Assembly: GCA_944332705.1 (NCBI GenBank)
Contig: CALVKM010000011.1
Span: forward strand, 1 to 32,457
Direction: 5' to 3'
Source: an uncultured Bacilli bacterium
Lineage (GTDB): Bacteria > Bacillota_I > Bacilli_A > RF39 > UBA660
DNA: 32,457 bases
A model generated the notes under the pieces. That model saw nothing but the letters and a program-made list of their open reading frames with translations, was not told the DNA's origin and did no database searches. Made by a program: the position numbers and the translations under genes. Position 1 is the stretch's first letter. Every line of letters begins with the position of its first letter. Positions 3,191 to 32,341 of the stretch are shown piece by piece.

Positions 3191-3817
3191 CTACTTTCTA
3201 ATAACTTCTTCTATATTCTCTTTACTTATAATACCATTTCTTAATATATTTACTTCATTATCTTTTATTTGAGCAACAGTTGATGCGAGTAAATTACTAC
3301 TAATATTTCCTTTTATAAATATATCAACATAACTAGCTAAATCATTTATAATATCTTCAATATTACTATTATTAACACTTCCTGATATATTAGCACTAGA
3401 TGTCGCTAGAGGATAATCTATACTTTTTAAAATACTTAAAGCAATTTCATGATTAGGTATTCTTACTCCAACAGTATCGCTGTTTGCCGTAACTAGATTG
3501 CTAATACAATCTTTCTTTTTTAAAATTAAAGTTATTGGCCCCGGCATAAATTTTTTAATTACTTTTTCTTCATAATCACTCACATAAGCAATATCTTTAA
3601 TTTTATTAATATCACTAAGCATCAAACTAAAAGGTTTAGAATAATCCCTTTTTTTAGCTTGAAATAATTTATCAATTACTTCCACCTTTAAAGCATTCCC
3701 CGCTATCCCAAAAACGGTTTCCGTGGGAAAAACTATTAATTTATCTTCATCTAAAGCCTTTGTTACAATTCTTAATTCATCTTCATTTATTTCATTAGTC
3801 CAATCAAATACTTGCAT
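3191..3817 (-). CDS. tsaC: L-threonylcarbamoyladenylate synthase (TsaC/YrdC family)
   Basis: It makes threonylcarbamoyl-AMP from threonine, bicarbonate and ATP, the first step of t6A37 tRNA modification. The 208-residue protein is a single YrdC domain with PTETVFGI (31-38), the KKRDYSKPF motif (about 56-63), PGPITLIL (92-99), TVGVRIP (115-121) and ATSSANISG (138-146). The C-terminal Sua5 domain is absent, so it is the short TsaC form. ATG at 3817 has an AAGGAAAG ribosome binding site and overlaps the end of the upstream gene by 14 bases, implying translational coupling. It ends in TAG five bases before the channel gene. No tsaB, tsaD or tsaE is in the window. Confidence 0.93.
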   Translation of the reverse strand: MQVFDWTNEINEDELRIVTKALDEDKLIVFPTETVFGIAGNALKVEVIDKLFQAKKRDYSKPFSLMLSDINKIKDIAYVSDYEEKVIKKFMPGPITLILKKKDCISNLVTANSDTVGVRIPNHEIALSILKSIDYPLATSSANISGSVNNSNIEDIINDLASYVDIFIKGNISSNLLASTVAQIKDNEVNILRNGIISKENIEEVIRK

Positions 3818-4607
3818 TATTATCTTTCCTTACCAAACTCATGCCTTTAGAATCTTTATTCATTTTATATAATATATTATTTAATAAATCAATCACTTGA
3901 ATTGTATGTAATTTACCAACTAAATTATATATTGTTTCATAATCTAATATACTACAAAGATCTTTTATTTCCCCTAAAAAATTATTATATAAATAACAGT
4001 CTTCTAAATTAAATAATTTTAAATCAATACTAATTATTAAATCTTCTATTTCTTTAGTGGCATTTAATACTTTTAGTTTATTTATAAGCTCACTAACTAT
4101 CTGCGGATATGATTTTAAAGCTTCTATTTCTAAAAACTCTTTAATAAATGCCGCATCACTACCATCTAGAACAATTAAAGACATCATATCTAATGGAGCA
4201 TTTGGCAAATATTTAGCATAATCATAAAAATATGTATAATTTGCAGAACCAGAAGCAAACAAAAAACTAAATATTTCTTCATCATGATTTTTTAAAATAT
4301 ATTTGGCATACCGATAAATATATTCAGAATCATTGGTATTTAATAAAGCTTGTTTAAATCTATCATCTACTCCCACATAGGAATAGCAATACATATAAAT
4401 GATTCTACTACTACCCCATTTAAGTATCTTATCATCCATTTCAGGACTTCTTAAACTTGGAATAAATCTAAGACAATTATAAATATCATCACAAGAAAGA
4501 GCACTAATATGAGCTTTTAATTCATTATCTATAGATATTATTCCTAAATTTACTAAACTACTTAAAAAAACCCAATTTTTATCCTTTACTATCTCACTTA
4601 TATTCAT
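3804..4607 (-). CDS. Uncharacterised helical-repeat-like protein
   Basis: I do not recognise this 267-residue protein. It has no membrane segment or signal peptide and looks alpha-helical, with recurring short patterns such as LLNTNDSEYIYRYAKYI (about 86-102) and LIVLDGSDAAFIKEFLEI (about 143-160), suggesting a weak solenoid. It ends in TGA; a TAA follows in frame three codons later. ATG at 4607 has a GTGAGG ribosome binding site, and a TGATACAAT extended -10 lies just upstream. It is the first gene of the operon with tsaC (14-base overlap) and the channel. The tnpB element lies directly upstream. No function is assigned. Confidence 0.75.
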   Translation of the reverse strand: MNISEIVKDKNWVFLSSLVNLGIISIDNELKAHISALSCDDIYNCLRFIPSLRSPEMDDKILKWGSSRIIYMYCYSYVGVDDRFKQALLNTNDSEYIYRYAKYILKNHDEEIFSFLFASGSANYTYFYDYAKYLPNAPLDMMSLIVLDGSDAAFIKEFLEIEALKSYPQIVSELINKLKVLNATKEIEDLIISIDLKLFNLEDCYLYNNFLGEIKDLCSILDYETIYNLVGKLHTIQVIDLLNNILYKMNKDSKGMSLVRKDNNASI

Positions 4608-4623
4608 ATTAACCTCACTAAAT

Positions 4624-4632
4624 ATTGTATCA
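4624..4632 (-). promoter_or_regulatory. Extended -10 promoter for the orf267-tsaC-channel operon
   Basis: The minus strand has TGA-TACAAT seventeen bases before the start codon at 4607. The -35 position is A/T-rich without a clear hexamer. The promoter lies about 45 bases beyond the omega-RNA hairpin of the tnpB element. Confidence 0.5.
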
Positions 4633-4677
4633 TAATTAAAATTTTTTTAATATACTAAATTCAACAATTTTGACTAT

Positions 4678-4789
4678 CCTTGTATCACTACAAGGCATTT
4701 CTGCTTCACCAAGTCCTTTAGACTCTCCACAGACCAAATTCGGATGGTCGCCACCCTACTATTTATTTAATTTAATTTTATTTTTTTAT
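4678..4789 (-). ncRNA. Candidate TnpB-associated omega-RNA (reRNA)
   Basis: Downstream of tnpB on the same strand there are three consecutive hairpins: GACCA/TGGTC (4732-4749), AGTC/GACT (4712-4724) and a terminal CCTTGT/ACAAGG (4678-4695), with a GAAGCAG segment before the last. This is the usual architecture of IS605 right ends, where the transcript serves as TnpB guide RNA and the bases just past the element act as guide. The guide would start at about 4677 on the minus strand (ATAGTCAAAATTGTTG). The scaffold is typically transcribed as part of the tnpB 3' region; no separate promoter was found. The 5' limit is arbitrary. Confidence 0.6.
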
Positions 4790-5914
4790 TTATACTAAAC
4801 TTCGCATATATATTTTTAATCCTTCAAACATTATATTAATACTAGCATTGATATCTCGGTCATGTATATATCCACATTTTGGACATTCCCACTTTCTTAT
4901 ACTTAAATCTTTTAACTTCTTATTTTGATATTCACATACACTACATATTTGACTACTTGGATAATATCTATTTATTGTATATAATTTTTTATTTTGCCAA
5001 AGGCACTTGTATTCCAAGACTCGTTTTATTTCAGCTAGGGGAATATTGACTAAATGTTTAGCTATACTTTTTGTTTGATACATTGCTTTAATATCTAAAT
5101 CTTCCATTACTATAATATCATTATCTTTAATTATTTTATTTGTTATATCATGGATTAAATGCTTACGGATGTTTTATAGTTTCATATATGCTCGTTTTAT
5201 TTTTAATTTTATTTTCTCTCTACTCTTGCTTCCTTTTTGACATCTTGCAAGAGCCTTTTGTAAGCCCTTCATTCGTTTATTAATATTTGCACATTCTAGG
5301 TTGTTTTCTATCTTTTCATTATGATTAGTTATTATTAAATCTTTTATTCCTAAATCTAGTCCTACGATACTTCTAGGTTGAAATGGAACTAATATTAGTG
5401 GTTCTTCTACTAATACACTTACATAATACTTAAGTCCTTCTCTTCTTATAACTGCACTTTTTATATTACCTATATGATATACTTCTTTTAACTTTGGTAA
5501 TGTAATTGTCCTATTTTTTAAATCTATTTTTATACTTTCATAGTTTTTACCTTTATAAGTATTTTTAATATTATTGGTTTTATAACTATTACCAGTATCT
5601 TTATTTTTAAATTTAGGAAATCCATTATTTTGACTAAAAAATCTATGGTATGCATCTTCTAGATTAAATGAAGCTACTCTTAAACTGCAACTATCTACTT
5701 CTTTTAACCATGGATAATCTTTACATAATTCTGGTATTTCTTTTATTTGTTCATAACAAGTTAAAGTTCTACCTGTTTTTTTATATTCATTTATTCGTTC
5801 TTCTAAAAAATGATTATATATAAATCTAGAACAACCAATGGTTTGATTGATTAACTTTTTTTGTTCATTGTTTGGATATAAACTAAATTGATAACCTTTT
5901 AAAATAGTAGTCAT
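4790..5914 (-). pseudogene. tnpB: RNA-guided endonuclease TnpB, interrupted by one in-frame stop
   Basis: The frame encodes an about 373-residue TnpB, the RNA-guided nuclease of IS605 elements. The N-terminal part (5174-5914, 246 residues) holds the wedge/REC region and the first RuvC Asp in GLDLGIKDL. A TAA at 5174-5176 then stops translation. Reading on in the same frame gives NIRKHLIHDITNK, then IIVMEDLDI with the RuvC Glu, the zinc-ribbon cysteines (CSVC and CPKC) and the last RuvC Asp in HDRDINAS. So all three catalytic acids and the zinc finger survive and the lesion is a single nonsense codon, not a frameshift; the lost residue was plausibly Tyr. An ATG at 5107 opens the C-terminal part but has no ribosome binding site. 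The start at 5914 has an AAGGAGG site and a strong promoter. Confidence 0.88.
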
Positions 5915-5938
5915 ACCAAATTTCCTCCTTGTAAATCA

Positions 5939-5967
5939 AGTATACCAAACAGTAGTTTGGATGTCAA
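5939..5967 (-). promoter_or_regulatory. Near-consensus tnpB promoter with palindromic spacer
   Basis: TTGACA (5962-5967) and TATACT (5939-5944) are exactly 17 bases apart, and the -10 is extended by TGG. Nearly the whole spacer is the dyad CCAAAC-TACT-GTTTGG (5945-5960). The dyad may be the left-end hairpin of the IS, an operator, or both. Confidence 0.7.
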
Positions 5968-6010
5968 TAATTTTATTTAAAAAAGTATAACTTTCCTATT
6001 ATATAAAGAA

Positions 6011-6035
6011 AAAGAACATATTATACTTGTTCTTT
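6011..6035 (-). terminator. Intrinsic terminator of the Clp ATPase gene
   Basis: AAAGAACA and TGTTCTTT pair over eight bases around a nine-base loop, and on the minus strand the hairpin leads into TTCTTT. It overlaps the last codons and stop codon (6021-6023). Confidence 0.6.
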
Positions 6036-10724: not shown

Positions 10725-12173
10725 CTAAAATACTAAGGTTATTAACTCTAAAACTAACATATTGGCAACAGCAATAGTTAAAACTATTTTAAATGCCCAT
10801 TTAAACCAAGTTGTATATTCAACTTTAGCTAAGGCAAGGCCTCCCATTATTGCTCCACAAGTTGGAGTAATTAAATTAACTAAACCATTGGCAGCAACAA
10901 AAGTCATAATTGTAACTTCGACACTATAACCTAAAGTGCTTGCAAGACCACCCATGATTGGAGTTGATAAAACAGCTAGACCACTTGATGAAGGTACTAA
11001 AATTGATAATACAACATGCAGTAAGTAATTTAGTGGCACAAAGGCTAGTTCTGGTAAGTTAGATAGCCAGTCCGCGGCATTATAGATTATGTAGTTATCT
11101 AAATGAGTTACTCCCATTAGAACGCTTGCTCCACGAGCAACAGCAATAATTAAAATAACTGCAATCATATCATTAGCGCCATCAATAAAGGTATCAACAA
11201 TTTCTTTTTCTTTAAAGCGATTGATTATACCAATAATTATTGCCATAACGAAGAACCAAACTGAGGCTTCCGCAAAATACCAACCACCTAAAGGTGTTCC
11301 AGTAAGCCAGCCAGTAAATTTATCAAATATTGTAACATTGAAATCTCCCCAAGGGATGAAACCAATAATCATAACAATAAATGTTAAACCTAGTAATATT
11401 AAAGTTATTTTTTGTTTGCCACTTAATTTTACATCTTTTTTCTTATCTTTTGCTCCTTCAATTTCGGCCGCAAATTTCTTTTCCATGGCTTTTTGTTCTT
11501 GAAGTGAAAGAAAAGTTGAACCTTTATCATCTTGAACTTTTTTAGCATAATTCATGACAAAGATAATTGATATTATCAAAGTTGTAATCCATAAAATTAG
11601 TCCTGTAAATATTAGCAAGCCTTGATTGGCTCCAACACCTTCAGGCAAACTACTTACTGCAACACCTACAGCAAATGGATTAACGGTTGAACCAAGAACA
11701 CCAGAACCAGCTCCTAGTAAAACTATGGCTGAACCTACTAAAGTATCCATGCCAGCAGCAACCATTGTGGCGGCCAGTAAAACATAAAATCCAACTGTTT
11801 CTTCAAGCATGCCATAAGTTGTACCCCCAACAGAAAAGATAAACATTAAAATAGGAATTAAAACTATTTCGTTACCTTTTAGTTTTTTAACTAAAACTTT
11901 AATACCAGTTTCTAAGGCACCAGTTTTAGTAATAATTGCCAAAAACCCACCTAGAATAAGAATAAATATACACACATCTACCGCATCGGCAAAACCTAGA
12001 ATTGGTGATAGTAAAAAGTCTGATAGTTTAGCACCAACTGTACCACTACCATCAACCAAAACACCATCAACAAACTCTGCATTTGGTAAAACGTGTGATA
12101 GTATCGCTAAGGCAATTATCAATATAAAGATAATTGAGAAAGCCGATAACATAAATTTTTTTCTTTTGGCCAT
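10725..12173 (-). CDS. YfcC-family carrier, probable arginine/ornithine exchanger of the arc operon
   Basis: A 482-residue polytopic membrane protein of the YfcC family (ion transporter superfamily). Hydrophobic helices fill most of the sequence, with a charged cytosolic loop at about 215-255 (MEKKFAAEIEGAKDKKKD). Motifs seen include SVGGTTYGMLEET (about 114-126), GAGSGVLGSTVNPFAVG (about 154-170) and a second-half counterpart around PSSSGLAVLSTP (about 396-407) and TPTCGAIMGG, the hairpin-like repeats of this fold. It starts one base after the arcC stop with a GTAGGAGG site, so it is part of arcABC. In ADI operons the carrier here exchanges arginine for ornithine; classical ArcD belongs to another superfamily, so the substrate is inferred from context. 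Confidence 0.85.
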   Translation of the reverse strand: MAKRKKFMLSAFSIIFILIIALAILSHVLPNAEFVDGVLVDGSGTVGAKLSDFLLSPILGFADAVDVCIFILILGGFLAIITKTGALETGIKVLVKKLKGNEIVLIPILMFIFSVGGTTYGMLEETVGFYVLLAATMVAAGMDTLVGSAIVLLGAGSGVLGSTVNPFAVGVAVSSLPEGVGANQGLLIFTGLILWITTLIISIIFVMNYAKKVQDDKGSTFLSLQEQKAMEKKFAAEIEGAKDKKKDVKLSGKQKITLILLGLTFIVMIIGFIPWGDFNVTIFDKFTGWLTGTPLGGWYFAEASVWFFVMAIIIGIINRFKEKEIVDTFIDGANDMIAVILIIAVARGASVLMGVTHLDNYIIYNAADWLSNLPELAFVPLNYLLHVVLSILVPSSSGLAVLSTPIMGGLASTLGYSVEVTIMTFVAANGLVNLITPTCGAIMGGLALAKVEYTTWFKWAFKIVLTIAVANMLVLELITLVF

Positions 12174-12174
12174 A

Positions 12175-13110
12175 TTATTTTCCTCCTACAATTTTCGTAC
12201 CAATATTATCTTCAAAAGCAATCCCTGCATTTTCTAGTGATGAAATTATTGCTTCTTTTTGGGAGTTTTCTACAAATTCGATGCAAGCTTCTACTTTTGG
12301 TAGCATACTACCTTTAGCAAATTCATTTGTTTTAATGTAGTTTTTAGCTTCATCCACGGTCATTTTTGATATACCTTTTTCTTTATCAGTGCCAAAATTT
12401 AAATATACTTTATCAATTGAAGTTAATATTAATAACTTATCAGCATCAATTAATTTAGCAAGTAAGGCACTAGATAAATCTTTATCAATTACTGCATCAA
12501 CTCCTTCTAACAATTCATGTTTATCATTTTTAATGACTGGAATTCCACCTCCTCCACAAGCAATAACTACAATGCCAGAATCTATTAATTTGGCAATTGC
12601 TTTTTTTTCAATTATGTCTATAGGTTTAGGAGATGCTACTACTCTTCTATAACCCCTACCAGCATCTTCCATAAATGTATAACCCTTTTCTTTTTCCTCT
12701 TTCTTAGCTTCTTCTAAATCATAAAAAGCACCAATTGGCTTAGTAGGATTTTTAAAAGCGGGATCAGAGGCATCAACTAAGACTTGAGTTATAAGCGTTA
12801 CACAATCTTTTTTTATCTTCTGTCTTTCTAATTCATCTTGCAAAGCTTGTTGTAATTGATAACCAATATAGCCTTGAGACATACTACCACATTCAGCAAA
12901 AGGCATAATTGGAGTATCAACTTTACTACTTGCATATTCCATTGCTAGAGATATTTGTCCAACTTGGGGACCATTACCATGAGTTAAAACTATTTCATTA
13001 CCATCTTTAATTAATTTAACAATTATTTTGGCAACACGTTCTAATCTATCCATTTGCTCTTCGGGAGTATTACCTAAGGCATTACCTCCAAGGGCTATTA
13101 CTATTTTCAT
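12175..13110 (-). CDS. arcC: Carbamate kinase
   Basis: It transfers phosphate from carbamoyl phosphate to ADP, giving ATP, CO2 and ammonia: the energy-yielding last step of the arginine deiminase pathway. The 311-residue amino-acid-kinase-fold protein has the N-terminal VIALGGNAL (4-12), [11 protein letters not shown] (42-52), the mid-region ACGGGGIPV, and a C-terminal GSMLPKVEA with the conserved Lys. Length is normal. ATG at 13110 has a GGAGG site and lies inside arcB, overlapping its end by 29 bases, so the two are translationally coupled. The carrier gene follows after one base. Confidence 0.96.
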
Positions 13111-14101
13111 TATTACCTCCTAAAGTGGCATACATAACAGCTTTTATTGTATGCATTCTATTTTCTGCTTCATCAAATACTTTAGATTTATCCATTCTAA
13201 ATACTTCATCAGTTACTTCCATTTCCCTTAAGCCAAATTTTTCATAAATATCTTTACCAATAGTGGTATTTAAATCATGAAATGATGGTAAACAATGCAA
13301 GAATATAGCACTTTCTTTAGCGTGCGATAAAACATCGCTATTTACTTGATATTTCTTTAGTAAATTAATTCTTTCTTCCCAAACACTATCCGCTTCTCCC
13401 ATGGATACCCAAACATCAGTATAGAAGACATCCGCATCTTTAACAGCAGAATATATATCTTCATTAAATTCAATAATTGATCCAGTAGACAAAGCAATAT
13501 CTTTACAAATATTAACTAAGTTTTCATCTGGCCACAAACTTTTTGGAGCCGCCAAGGAAAAGTTAACACCTAATTTAGCACTAGCAACCATTAGGGAATT
13601 AGCAACATTATTGCGTCCATCACCACAAAATACTAACTTTAATCCTTTGAGGGTGCCAAAATTTTCTTTAATAGTTAGAAAATCAGCAAGCATTTGGGTT
13701 GGATGAAATTCATTAGTTAGACCATTCCACACTGGTACACCTGCATTTTTGGCTAAATTTTCAACAATACTTTGATCAAATCCCCGATATTCTATGCCAT
13801 CATACATTCGTCCTAGTACTTTCGCAGTATCTTCAATACTTTCTTTTTTGCCCATTTGACTAGCTGCGGGATCTAGAAATGTTACATGCATTCCCAAATC
13901 ATAAGCCGCAACTTCAAAAGCACATCTTGTTCTTGTTGAAGTTTTTTCAAATAAAAGAGCAATATTTTTTCCTTTTAAATATTCATGAGGAATATTATTT
14001 TTCTTTTTATTTTTAAAATCCGCACTTAAATCTAATAGATACTCAATTTCTTCTGTAGTATAATCTAGTAGTTTTAAAAAATTTCGTCCTTTTAAGTTCA
14101 T
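13082..14101 (-). CDS. arcB: Ornithine carbamoyltransferase, catabolic
   Basis: In this pathway it splits citrulline with phosphate into ornithine and carbamoyl phosphate. The 339-residue protein has the carbamoyl-phosphate loop STRTR (55-59), HPTQ (133-136), the ornithine-binding D229 and SMG loop (233-235), and the catalytic HCLP (269-272). The SMG loop argues for ornithine over putrescine or agmatine carbamoyltransferases. Start ATG 14099-14101 overlaps the arcA stop as TAATG, with a GGGAGG site inside arcA. Its last 29 bases overlap arcC. The catabolic direction is inferred from the operon; no argG, argH or argC is present. Confidence 0.96.
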
Positions 14102-15342
14102 TAGTCCTCCCTATATAGTGGCATACTCATACATCTTGGACCACCACGACCGCGTGAAAGTTCAGCACTAGCCATTTCGATAACTTTAATACCATGAGCT
14201 CTTAAAACTTCATTAGTTATATTATTACGATTATAAACAACTACTACTCCTGGAGCAATACATAATGTATTTGTGCCATCATTCCATTGTTCTCTTTGAC
14301 TAGCTACATCATCTCCTCCAGCACAAGGAATTAAAGTTACTTTTAAACCTAAATAATGACTCAATATGTTTTCTAGAGAATCATTTATCTCGCGAACATT
14401 TAAATCTTCATCACTATTAGGATCATTTCCTTCAGTTATTTCAAATACTTGCAAGGTTTTCATAATTCCAGGATGATAAGTAAATTTATCAACATCTATT
14501 TGGGTAAATACTGTATCAAGATGCATAAATGCCCTGGACTCAGGAATATTGAAAGCTAATACAGTATCTATACTGCAACTTGGATTTTTAAATAAATTTT
14601 TAGCTAGTTTATCAATAGCTCCCGCTTCGGTTCTTTGAGATATTCCAACTGCTAAAATGTGGTCATTTAAATTTAGAACATCCCCACCTTCAATATGCCA
14701 ATCATAGTCCCTATCATAATATTTTTCTATTTCTCCTTTAAATTTAGGATGATATTTAAAAATATAATCCGCATAGATAGTTTCTCTTCTGCGAGTTTCT
14801 GAATACATTTTATTTAAAACTATGCCACTACCAACACTAGCAAAAGGATCTCTAGTAAAATACAAATTAGGCATAGGTTCAACAATAAAATCAGTTTCCG
14901 CTGTAACTAAATCTACTAAAGATTTTTCCATAATTCTTTTACTACGATCTAGTTCATAAATTTGGACACCTTCCATAGTTTTTAAAACAAATTCTTTAGT
15001 TTCTTCAATACCCATTAAGTATTCATAAACTAAATCACGATATTTTGGAGTATTTACTCCAGCTTCAGCGATAAATTGCCTTAAGAATTTAGGCTTAATT
15101 TCCGGATTATAATCCAGAGTTTCAGCCATTAAATCCTCCAAATAATAAACTTTGATGTCATTGTCCCTTAAAATTTGGACAAATTCATCATGTTCCGCCT
15201 GGGCTACTTTTAAATAAGGAATGTCATCAAAAAGCAACCGATGTAATGTATCGGGAGTCAAATTGAGTAATTCCTTGCCTGGGCGATGAACTAAGACTTC
15301 TTTTAAAGGTTTAATTTCGCTTTTTACATTAATTTCACTCAT
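14101..15342 (-). CDS. arcA: Arginine deiminase
   Basis: It hydrolyses L-arginine to citrulline and ammonia, the first step of the ADI pathway. The 413-residue protein has the normal length and the family motifs: TRDPF (163-167), the catalytic Glu/His positions in HIEGGD (216-221) and MHLDTVFT (273-280), and the C-terminal nucleophile Cys404 in [13 protein letters not shown] at 15342 has a TAAGGAGG site. It follows the ABC ATPase gene by 44 bases with no terminator. An AT-rich TATAAT-like stretch lies in that gap, so an internal promoter is possible. Tight coupling to arcB (TAATG) and arcC makes this the core of an arginine-fermentation operon. Confidence 0.97.
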
Positions 15343-28922: not shown

Positions 28923-31900
28923 TTACACTTTAAACAATCTATTTTTCTTTCTTAAAATAATATTGCCTATAACAACAATTATTAAAGCTCCAACAAGTAA
29001 AATAATACTCAATCTAGTACCCGTACTAGGATTATTAGGTATTTCTTCTGAAGTTATTTTAACTATTACTTCATTACTTAAAATTTCATCATCATTAACT
29101 ATTAATGTTGCGGTATTAGGTATTTCCTCTAGTTCAGTATCCTCCTTAACTTTAGCAGTTATTTCAATAACTACCTCTTCATTAGGAAGTAAAGAAATAA
29201 TCCAAGAATAAATGCCATCATTAATTGTAGTATTTGCACTATCAATTATTTCTAAATTCTCATTAAATATATCTTCTACTCTTATATTATCAACAGCAAC
29301 ACTACTTTCATTCTTAATTTTAATGTAATATTTAAATTCTTCATCAACCATTACTAAATCTTTACTTACCTGTTTAGTAATAGATAATTTATAATCAACA
29401 ACTAAAACATCAACTTCATCCCTAATACTTGGTTTATCATCATATGTAGCTTCAACATAATTAGTAATTATATCACCACTATTCTTATTATTTACTCTTA
29501 CTTTAACATTAAATCTTACTGTTTCATTTACTGCAATATTATCTATTTGCCAATTTAGGGTATTATCAACCACATTACAATTATCACAAGCTAATATTTC
29601 TAAATCACTGTCAAAAGTATCAACAACATTAATATTACTAGCAACAGCTGTTCCATTATTAGTAATAGTTATTGTATAGTTAAATTCTTCATTATTGACA
29701 ACCTGGTATTTATCACTACTTTTTTCTATAACTAAATTAGAATCAATTATAGTTATATCTACATCACTATCAAGTTCTAAATTCGGGGTTGTAAGAGTAG
29801 CAATATTATTAATAATCTCATCTTTTGGAGCATTACTATTAACCCGAGCATTAATAGTTATACTAAATTCTTCATTTGGATTTAATGTATCAATTCTAAA
29901 TTCATTATTACTTATAATATTTATTCTATCACTACTTGGAATTGCTTCTAAAAAGGTTATATAATCTGGAGTTAAATCACTAATAACAACATCACTAACT
30001 GAAGCATCGCCATTATTACCAAAAGTTATAGTATAACTAAATTCTTCATTTGGTCTTAAAGTATTTTTAGATACACTTTTAACTAAATATACATCTGATG
30101 CTATAATTACTACATCTTCATCATCACTTATCTCTTCATCATCATGTGTTACTACAACAGTATTCTTTATAGTTGTATTATTAGATACATTTTCTTTAGC
30201 TTTTATAACAACCTCAAAAGATACTTGATCAAAAGCTGGAATACTCTCAACCATCCAAGAGATTTGATTGTTTTCAACTATTCCCGAATCACTATCAACA
30301 ATATCTAATAATTCATTAATGGCATCAGTTACATAAACTCTATCACTAGCAATAGAACCATCATTATAAACCACTATATTATAACTAAATTCTTCTCCAA
30401 TTTCATATATTGCTGGATTATCATTCACTGTTTTTTCTACTCTTAATATTGGTTTTCTTACGATTACTTCTTCTTCATCACTGATACTTGGTTTTCCTGT
30501 TTCTGTTAAAGTAACAACATTATTAATTGTAGTATTATCACTAGCACTTTTTCTAGCCTTTACAGTAATAGTAAAATTCTTCTCATCTTGAGCTGCTAAA
30601 GAAGGTATTGTCCAAGTTATAGTTTGACCATTAATTGCAGCATTTGGAGCTGAAATTATTTCTAAATATGAATCAATGACATCAGTTATAATTATATTAT
30701 TACTTGGAGCACTACCATTATTAAATACTCTAATATTATAGGTAAATTCTTCATTTGGTCTAACTACACTTTTATTAACCGTTTTTTCTATTGTAACATT
30801 TGAATCTACTACATTTACATTTACTTCATCTTCTAAAGGTTGTTCATCTTCTTCAGTAAGGACTACAACATTTTTTATTACTGAATCTGCTTGAACATTA
30901 TCATTTACTCGCACAACTATTTCATAAGTATTAACTTCATCTGGAGAAAGACTAGAAACTTCCCAAGTTAAAGTATTTCCTGAAATGCTTGCCCCTTCTG
31001 CTTTAATTACTGTAAGTCTTGAATCAATGGTATCTGTGATAGTTATAGAATCACTAAAAGCATCACCAGTATTACCAAATTCAATATAATAACTAAATTC
31101 TTCTCCAGGTCTAAGAGTTGTCTTACTAGCACTTTTAGCAACATAAACATCATCATCAACTACTGTTACATCATCACTAGCTTGAACATCTTCGTGATTT
31201 GTGGCACTAACTGTGGCAACATTAATAAAATTTTGTAGTTCTGCATCTTCATTTGCTCGCAGAGTTATAGTAATCGTCTCTTTAGATTCTTTAGTTAAAT
31301 CTCCAAGTTCAAATACCAAATTATTACCCGTACCACTATTTTCATGACTAGTACTAACAATTGTAAAGTTAGAATCGATTGTATCTCTAACAATTACATC
31401 ATAAGCGGTAGCATCACGATTATCAACAGTTATAGCATAAGTAAATGTATCTCCTCTTTTAACAAAATCAGCACTTGCTTCTTTAGTAATACTCAAACTA
31501 GGTTTTAATATACCAAGTTCATAATCATCACTTTTTTCTTTATCACCAACTGTAATACTGGAAGTATTTAATATGGTATTTCCCGTTGCATCAATTAACC
31601 TAACTTTGACATATATAGTTTTTTCTTCACCAACCCCTAAAGAATCTAGAGTATAAGTTATGGTATTACCGCTGCGATTTCCCGAAATATCTTTAAAATC
31701 AACATCTAGCACTTCTAATTCACTAGGTATTTGGTCAATAAAATTAATTGTATCAGTTGGTATAGGACTAGTATTTTGAATAGTTATTTTATAATAAAAT
31801 TCTTCGTTAAACTCAACATTATCTAAACCAACTAAAGAATCTGTACTTGCAATAGCACTTTTAGTAATATCAACATCATTAGTTGAAACTAAATCCCTTA

Positions 31901-32315
31901 AAGCATTAAATTTCAAAGTACAATCTTCTGTATAATCAGGATCCGCATATTGCGAAACTACTCTTGCAAAATAAACTTTACCATCACTACTAGTATATAC
32001 ATCATTAGAAATAAAACTAAAAGATTTTTCATCCATATCAATATATTCCGCATAAAAATTACCAGAACTTTCAATTTCTAAAACATTAAGGTCAATTTCT
32101 TCATAAGTTCCTTCGATATGATTAATCTCTTCATTAGCACTAATCGTAAAATAAACATTATAAATATGATAAATACTTCCATCATCATCCCTAATAGTTT
32201 CAATATCCGCTCCAAGATTAACCGCTGCATCAGCTTTAGAAATATTTCTAATTATAAAAACACTAATAATTGCTAATATAAAAATTATTCCAATTATTAT
32301 TTTACGCCAGTTCAT
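28923..32315 (-). CDS. Secreted DUF11-repeat surface protein with NPSTG sorting-type C-terminus
   Basis: A 1130-residue exported protein. It has an N-terminal hydrophobic signal (about 5-22) ending near SKADA-AV, a distinct domain (about 30-147), then eight tandem DUF11-like beta domains of about 115 residues (to about 1080). Each begins with a strand such as SITKEAS, YVAKSAS or TIEKTVN, followed by GEEFSYxIxxxNxG, a TDxxD turn and a closing INxxxLT segment. The C-terminus is NPSTG (1095-1099), a hydrophobic helix and RKKNRLFKV, the layout of a sortase signal with N in place of L. ATG at 32315 follows TGGTGG; the upstream GTG codons at 32327 and 32324 belong to that site. Likely an adhesin or stalk. 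The gene is monocistronic, with a promoter at 32342-32370 and a strong terminator. Confidence 0.9.
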   Translation of the reverse strand: MNWRKIIIGIIFILAIISVFIIRNISKADAAVNLGADIETIRDDDGSIYHIYNVYFTISANEEINHIEGTYEEIDLNVLEIESSGNFYAEYIDMDEKSFSFISNDVYTSSDGKVYFARVVSQYADPDYTEDCTLKFNALRDLVSTNDVDITKSAIASTDSLVGLDNVEFNEEFYYKITIQNTSPIPTDTINFIDQIPSELEVLDVDFKDISGNRSGNTITYTLDSLGVGEEKTIYVKVRLIDATGNTILNTSSITVGDKEKSDDYELGILKPSLSITKEASADFVKRGDTFTYAITVDNRDATAYDVIVRDTIDSNFTIVSTSHENSGTGNNLVFELGDLTKESKETITITLRANEDAELQNFINVATVSATNHEDVQASDDVTVVDDDVYVAKSASKTTLRPGEEFSYYIEFGNTGDAFSDSITITDTIDSRLTVIKAEGASISGNTLTWEVSSLSPDEVNTYEIVVRVNDNVQADSVIKNVVVLTEEDEQPLEDEVNVNVVDSNVTIEKTVNKSVVRPNEEFTYNIRVFNNGSAPSNNIIITDVIDSYLEIISAPNAAINGQTITWTIPSLAAQDEKNFTITVKARKSASDNTTINNVVTLTETGKPSISDEEEVIVRKPILRVEKTVNDNPAIYEIGEEFSYNIVVYNDGSIASDRVYVTDAINELLDIVDSDSGIVENNQISWMVESIPAFDQVSFEVVIKAKENVSNNTTIKNTVVVTHDDEEISDDEDVVIIASDVYLVKSVSKNTLRPNEEFSYTITFGNNGDASVSDVVISDLTPDYITFLEAIPSSDRINIISNNEFRIDTLNPNEEFSITINARVNSNAPKDEIINNIATLTTPNLELDSDVDITIIDSNLVIEKSSDKYQVVNNEEFNYTITITNNGTAVASNINVVDTFDSDLEILACDNCNVVDNTLNWQIDNIAVNETVRFNVKVRVNNKNSGDIITNYVEATYDDKPSIRDEVDVLVVDYKLSITKQVSKDLVMVDEEFKYYIKIKNESSVAVDNIRVEDIFNENLEIIDSANTTINDGIYSWIISLLPNEEVVIEITAKVKEDTELEEIPNTATLIVNDDEILSNEVIVKITSEEIPNNPSTGTRLSIILLVGALIIVVIGNIILRKKNRLFKV

Positions 32316-32341
32316 TAATACCACCACACTATTATATTATT

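What the first reader, a model, noticed from the sequence alone, without database searches (positions are those of the whole stretch)
4678..5967. tnpB inactivated by one in-frame stop while its guide RNA and catalytic residues persist
The TAA at 5174-5176 is in the same frame as both halves. RuvC Asp, Glu and Asp, the zinc ribbon, a strong promoter and three omega-RNA hairpins are all kept. This is either very recent decay, a strain-level variant, or expression of a 246-residue N-terminal RNA-binding fragment that could act as a nuclease-dead, RNA-guided binder, by analogy with TldR regulators derived from TnpB.
Basis: partly seen in the sequence, partly recalled or inferred. Interest (0 to 1): 0.6.

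Follow-up and report, generated by a model that had tools for sequence, protein, structure and literature searches.

The report
Dead copy of a tnpB transposon
The stop codon in this RNA-guided nuclease gene is real, but the copy is ordinary transposon debris: intact sibling copies exist in the same genome, and this one has also lost part of its RNA-binding domain and the end of its guide RNA.

Summary
In detail: an IS605-type tnpB (minus strand, 5914-4790) is cut by one in-frame TAA at 5176-5174, with RuvC D-E-D, zinc ribbon, promoter and three guide-RNA hairpins kept. The interpretation mostly fails. The same genome has seven full-length copies; five are intact (383 codons). The window copy and one at another locus (C58) share the stop, the same 27-nt in-frame deletion in the WED domain, and an identical 305-bp block around the stop, although they differ at 62 of 1313 sites overall. 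So the stop is not a random base error; it most likely moved between copies by recombination. The window copy has also lost its right end: the fourth, covarying hairpin and the terminal TTTTGTTC found in 29 of 33 right ends. Its 3' flank is promoter-region DNA shared with another locus. No TldR hallmark tested was met. Best reading: a recently killed, probably immobile copy in a tnpB-only (IS1341-like) family with intact members. The family's preference for sites just after transcription terminators (27 of 35) is the more interesting by-product. An assembler artefact cannot be excluded without reads.

The parts
6011..6035 (-). terminator-like hairpin (AAAGAACA...TGTTCTTT) at the end of the clp-like gene, followed by a T-rich tract; insertion site of the element
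4666..6000 (-). IS1341-like (tnpB-only) element copy: left end AATAGGAAAG at 6000, similarity to intact siblings stops at 4666
5939..5967 (-). promoter TTGACA-N17-TATACT; its spacer holds the left-end palindrome CCAAAC..GTTTGG
4790..5914 (-). tnpB reading frame, 374 codons plus terminal TAA, interrupted
5174..5176 (-). in-frame TAA, codon 247; a sense codon for one invariant residue in 18 of 18 intact relatives aligned
5479..5480 (-). junction of a 27-nt in-frame deletion that removes a conserved RGY(R/K) segment of the WED domain; shared only with copy C58 among those compared
5061..5365 (-). 305-bp block identical to copy C58 (contains the stop): recombination or gene-conversion tract
4678..4756 (-). 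omega-RNA scaffold, three kept hairpins (4756-4742, 4733-4700, 4695-4678)
4666..4675 (-). 5' arm of the terminal right-end hairpin; its 3' arm and TTTTGTTC tip are missing
4618..4665 (-). segment shared with contig C51, where it lies upstream of a different gene; a similar segment without the element is upstream of that gene's homologue in G028

Best explanation
This is a recently inactivated, probably immobile copy of a multi-copy tnpB-only (IS1341-like, IS200/IS605-type) insertion sequence. Its tnpB carries two lesions (a 27-nt WED deletion and a premature stop) that it shares with one sibling, most likely because tracts were exchanged between copies by recombination. [quoted passage not shown] The promoter probably still transcribes it, but no working RNA-guided nuclease or guide RNA is expected. 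Shown: the lesions, the intact siblings, the shared block, the missing right end. Inferred: recombination as the cause, loss of mobility and of function.
For: Seven full-length copies in the own genome, five without stops, two with the same TAA. C11 and C58 differ at 62 of 1313 aligned sites but at 0 of 305 around the stop; the longest identical run in 20,000 random placements was 250. Similar mosaics between other copies (C37/C8 647 identical columns; C37/C58 289). Stop and deletion hit positions conserved in 18 of 18 intact relatives (one has KGY for RGY). 29 of 33 distinct right ends keep the terminal TTTTGTTC (one mismatch allowed), the window copy does not; the terminal stem covaries (A-U to C-G in 12 of 28, U-A to C-G in 3 of 28). 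The 3' flank matches C51. No element after the clp-like gene in 5 of 5 relatives looked at. The right end marks the scaffold's 3' end and the guide follows it (PMC10278001, passages); in ISDra2 the last scaffold bases form a pseudoknot (PMC10097598, passages).
Against: The frame is otherwise open for 374 codons and differences between C11 and C58 after the stop are mostly silent (dN/dS 0.04). This would fit continued translation, but those differences lie outside the shared block and can be inherited from functional copies. No reads were seen. Recombination is inferred from a draft MAG in which repeats can be merged.
Confidence: 0.8

Rival explanations
1. Assembly artefact: the assembler merged small differences between near-identical copies, so the stop belongs to one locus (or a co-binned strain) and was written into the other; the shared right flank could likewise be a mis-join.
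For: Draft MAG with 81 contigs, 84% complete, 5% contamination; five other pieces of the element end at contig ends. An identical 305-bp block is longer than usual short-read k-mers (recalled).
Against: The copies differ by about 5% elsewhere and were kept apart; C11 and C51 differ at 3 positions in the shared right-end region; the stop must still exist in some reads.
Confidence: 0.13
2. The 246-residue N-terminal fragment is a nuclease-dead RNA-guided binder, like a TldR.
For: Promoter, ribosome site and three scaffold hairpins remain. The only other match to the putative guide lies upstream of another gene.
Against: The fragment stops within the RuvC domain and lacks a conserved WED segment; in ISDra2 the pseudoknot is sandwiched between WED and RuvC (PMC10097598 passages). 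Scaffold 3' end lost. The guide match is explained by shared ancestry (97 nt at 95%) and is preceded by scaffold, not by the left-end target motif. Not conserved: stop context in 1 of 30 genomes.
Confidence: 0.02
3. The broken copy is a guide donor: its RNA is loaded in trans by TnpB from the intact siblings.
For: Five intact TnpB copies in the genome. A frameshifted tldR locus was suggested to supply guide RNA in trans (PMC13418256 figure legend).
Against: Right-end tip and terminal hairpin are missing here. C58, with an almost normal right end, is a better candidate.
Confidence: 0.05

Closest known systems
IS1341-type (tnpB-only) elements of the IS200/IS605 family
   Same: TnpB flanked by palindromic left and right ends, guide-RNA scaffold at the right end, no tnpA in the element, short ends-only derivatives
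   Different: This copy has a stop, a WED deletion and no right-end tip; the family here inserts mostly after terminators
IS605 tnpB copies of Halanaerobium hydrogeniformans (PMC7290912, passages read)
   Same: Many tnpB copies that appear shuffled by recombination, fragments and an ends-only copy
   Different: There the shuffled marks are inserts and tnpA remnants are present; here a tract with a stop is shared
TldR (TnpB-like nuclease-dead repressors; PMC13418256, passages read)
   Same: A TnpB relative without nuclease activity next to a scaffold RNA
   Different: Here the frame is cut, the catalytic residues are unchanged in the DNA, the scaffold end is lost and no conserved partner gene was seen
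ISDra2 TnpB (PDB 8H1J, 8BF8)
   Same: Homologous over residues 6-366, E about 2e-63
   Different: Intact and active (PMC10097598, passages)

Membership tests
IS200/IS605, IS1341-type | TnpB with OrfB and TNB domains | tested here: met
   (on the read-through protein; NCBIfam guided_TnpB 277 bits, cut-off 100)
IS200/IS605, IS1341-type | Conserved left end with subterminal palindrome | tested here: met
IS200/IS605, IS1341-type | Conserved right end with palindrome and tip | tested here: not met
   lost in this copy; kept in 29 of 33 right ends. The family meets it; this copy is a truncated descendant, not a complete element
IS200/IS605, IS1341-type | No tnpA in the element | tested here: met
   one search shows none between the ends; own genome has only a broken Y1 gene on C18
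TldR | RuvC residues mutated in an otherwise open gene | tested here: not met
   D, E, D all encoded; the gene is cut by a stop
TldR | Conserved association with a non-transposon gene | tested here: not met
   element absent behind the clp-like gene in 5 of 5 relatives looked at
TldR | Guide matching a promoter next to a TAM | tested here: inconclusive
   only C51 matches besides itself, up to 3 mismatches, and is preceded by scaffold; the TAM is inferred, not measured, and the guide boundary is lost
TldR | RNA-guided DNA binding | not testable with these tools
   needs ChIP-seq or RIP-seq

The most novel reading that the evidence does not exclude
Inactive tnpB copies with usable right ends (C58 and ends-only copies more than the window copy) form a scattered guide array served in trans by the intact TnpBs, and gene conversion moves dead and live coding tracts among them.
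Probability: 0.06. Interest if true: 0.5.

Novelty: new member of a known kind. Interest (0 to 1): 0.17.

Why it matters
It shows how a stop in tnpB can look like a candidate regulator when one copy is read alone, and why all copies must be compared. The family itself (tnpB-only, multi-copy, no matching tnpA found, inserting behind terminators) is a good natural set for asking what mobilises IS1341-type elements and whether broken copies still donate guides.

Tried and rejected
Base-call error: rejected as the sole cause by the second copy. TldR-like reading: rejected on scaffold end, WED deletion and lack of conservation. Constraint downstream of the stop as evidence for readthrough: rejected, since C11-C58 differences lie outside the shared block; private changes in the window copy are too few to test (4 before the stop, 2 silent and 2 not; 1 silent after it). 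Rfam found nothing in the window at gathering thresholds. A serine recombinase as mobiliser: PF00239 hits exist in 4 of 4 genomes searched, mostly in long frames, not followed. Y1 transposase: in 11 of 30 genus genomes, but not in G004, which holds several intact copies. Literature searches about terminators and IS605 or tnpB gene conversion gave only PMC7290912 as close. The genome-contig scan served to learn what kind of genomes hold relatives (MAGs of uncultured Bacilli). The first end search beside Y1 genes was cut at 40 rows, all left-end; one search repeated it.

Full report
The finding. On the minus strand a tnpB frame runs from ATG at 5914 to the stop at 4790 and is interrupted by TAA at 5176-5174, codon 247. 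The read-through protein matches three TnpB Pfam domains above cut-off and ISDra2 TnpB in the PDB (8H1J, E 1.8e-63). The RuvC residues are Asp187, Glu271 and Asp354, the same in 18 of 18 intact relatives aligned.

Copies. The window is contig C11 of a 1.43-Mb MAG. A protein search of that genome gave 16 matching pieces; seven are full length. C37, C3, C8, C13 and C12 are open (383 codons); C11 and C58 have one TAA each. The exact stop context occurs twice, both in this genome, among 30 genomes of the genus. C58 has different neighbours. Both also share a 27-nt in-frame deletion absent from the 18 intact relatives aligned, which removes a conserved RGY(R/K) stretch. In ISDra2 the WED domain is residues 1-12 and 117-176 and RuvC 185-326 and 360-375 (PMC10097598, passages), so the deletion lies in WED and the stop within RuvC (placed through the alignment).

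Mosaic. C11 and C58 differ at 62 of 1313 aligned sites, with none in the 305 columns around the stop (window 5365-5061); the longest run in 20,000 random placements was 250. Other pairs show the same kind of pattern: C37/C8 have 647 identical columns, C37/C58 289. I read this as recombination between copies; recombination among tnpB copies was proposed in Halanaerobium (PMC7290912, passages), whose reference list names Cordaux 2009 on gene conversion keeping non-functional elements (title only seen). Merging of repeats by the assembler would look alike and cannot be excluded here. dN/dS between C11 and C58 is 0.26 before and 0.04 after the stop; pairs without a stop give 0.12-0.37 and 0.07-0.21. 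These differences lie outside the shared block, so they say nothing sure about the time since the stop arose.

Right end. Of 33 distinct right ends in the loci held, 29 carry the terminal TTTTGTTC (one mismatch allowed); the four without are the window, C51, a short element on C4 and a diverged one (L054). For 28 of the 29 (one dropped because its start did not match the pattern used) an alignment gives four hairpins; the terminal one shows double changes that keep pairs (12 of 28 and 3 of 28 sequences at two pairs). The window keeps the first three hairpins and loses the fourth; folding energy is -27.6 against -34.2 and -33.1 kcal/mol for two complete siblings. The right end marks the 3' end of the scaffold and the guide follows it (PMC10278001, passages).

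Flank. From 4665 to about 4618 the window matches contig C51, where the segment lies before another gene; a similar segment precedes that gene's homologue in G028 without the element. The window's right flank therefore seems to come from a C51-like place. Twenty bases past 4666 match only C11 and C51 in the genome at up to 3 mismatches. The element is absent behind the clp-like gene in five relatives looked at: G004, G005, G014, G015, G028 (for G005 only about 75 nt past the gene were seen).

Mobiliser. In the own genome the only Y1 transposase hits are two pieces of one broken gene on C18. Searching 13 loci around Y1 genes (12 places) with the left and right ends gave one strong match, the separate element copy at the end of C18 about 2 kb away; all others were weak. 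Y1 hits occur in 11 of 30 genus genomes, TnpB hits in 16 of 30. The family fits the IS1341 description, TnpB alone between ends, whose autonomy is called unclear (PMC9956272, passages).

Insertion sites. Of 35 distinct left ends, 27 follow a terminator-like hairpin with T-tract by a simple score, against 6 of 128 control stretches from the same loci and 238 of 700 shuffles that keep the T-rich tail. An earlier, looser scan listed 37 sites, a few of them false matches to the pattern.

Verdict. A real but ordinary finding: a dead copy in a family with intact members. Interest is low for the stop itself; the terminator-tail preference deserves a look of its own.

Noticed in passing
6001-6035 and 34 further left ends in loci L002-L112: The element family inserts just behind intrinsic terminators (consensus TTTTTRTAT|AATAGG): 27 of 35 sites against 6 of 128 controls.
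   Followed up: partly
L029:376-639, L084, L085: A short tnpB-less element with both ends and a full guide-RNA scaffold sits at what looks like the same site (after a T-box-like leader, before a gene starting MSE) in three genomes, G000, G004 and G014.
   Followed up: partly
L027, L028, L031: Solo left ends of about 53-110 bp on C5, C31 and C1; two are broken soon after the tnpB start codon.
   Followed up: no
4613-4665 upstream of the gene at 3804-4607: The 267-residue gene appears to have received the promoter region of a different gene (HAD-like on C51, named by resemblance only) together with the element's right end.
   Followed up: partly
L033:1053-1435 (C18:16055-16410): The only Y1 transposase found in the genome is split over two frames.
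   Followed up: partly
28923-32327: A 1134-residue repetitive surface-type protein with an anchor-like C-terminus (judged from its sequence, not searched).
   Followed up: no
10725-15342: Genes that look like an arginine deiminase pathway cluster (deiminase, transcarbamylase, carbamate kinase, transporter); named by eye, not searched.
   Followed up: no
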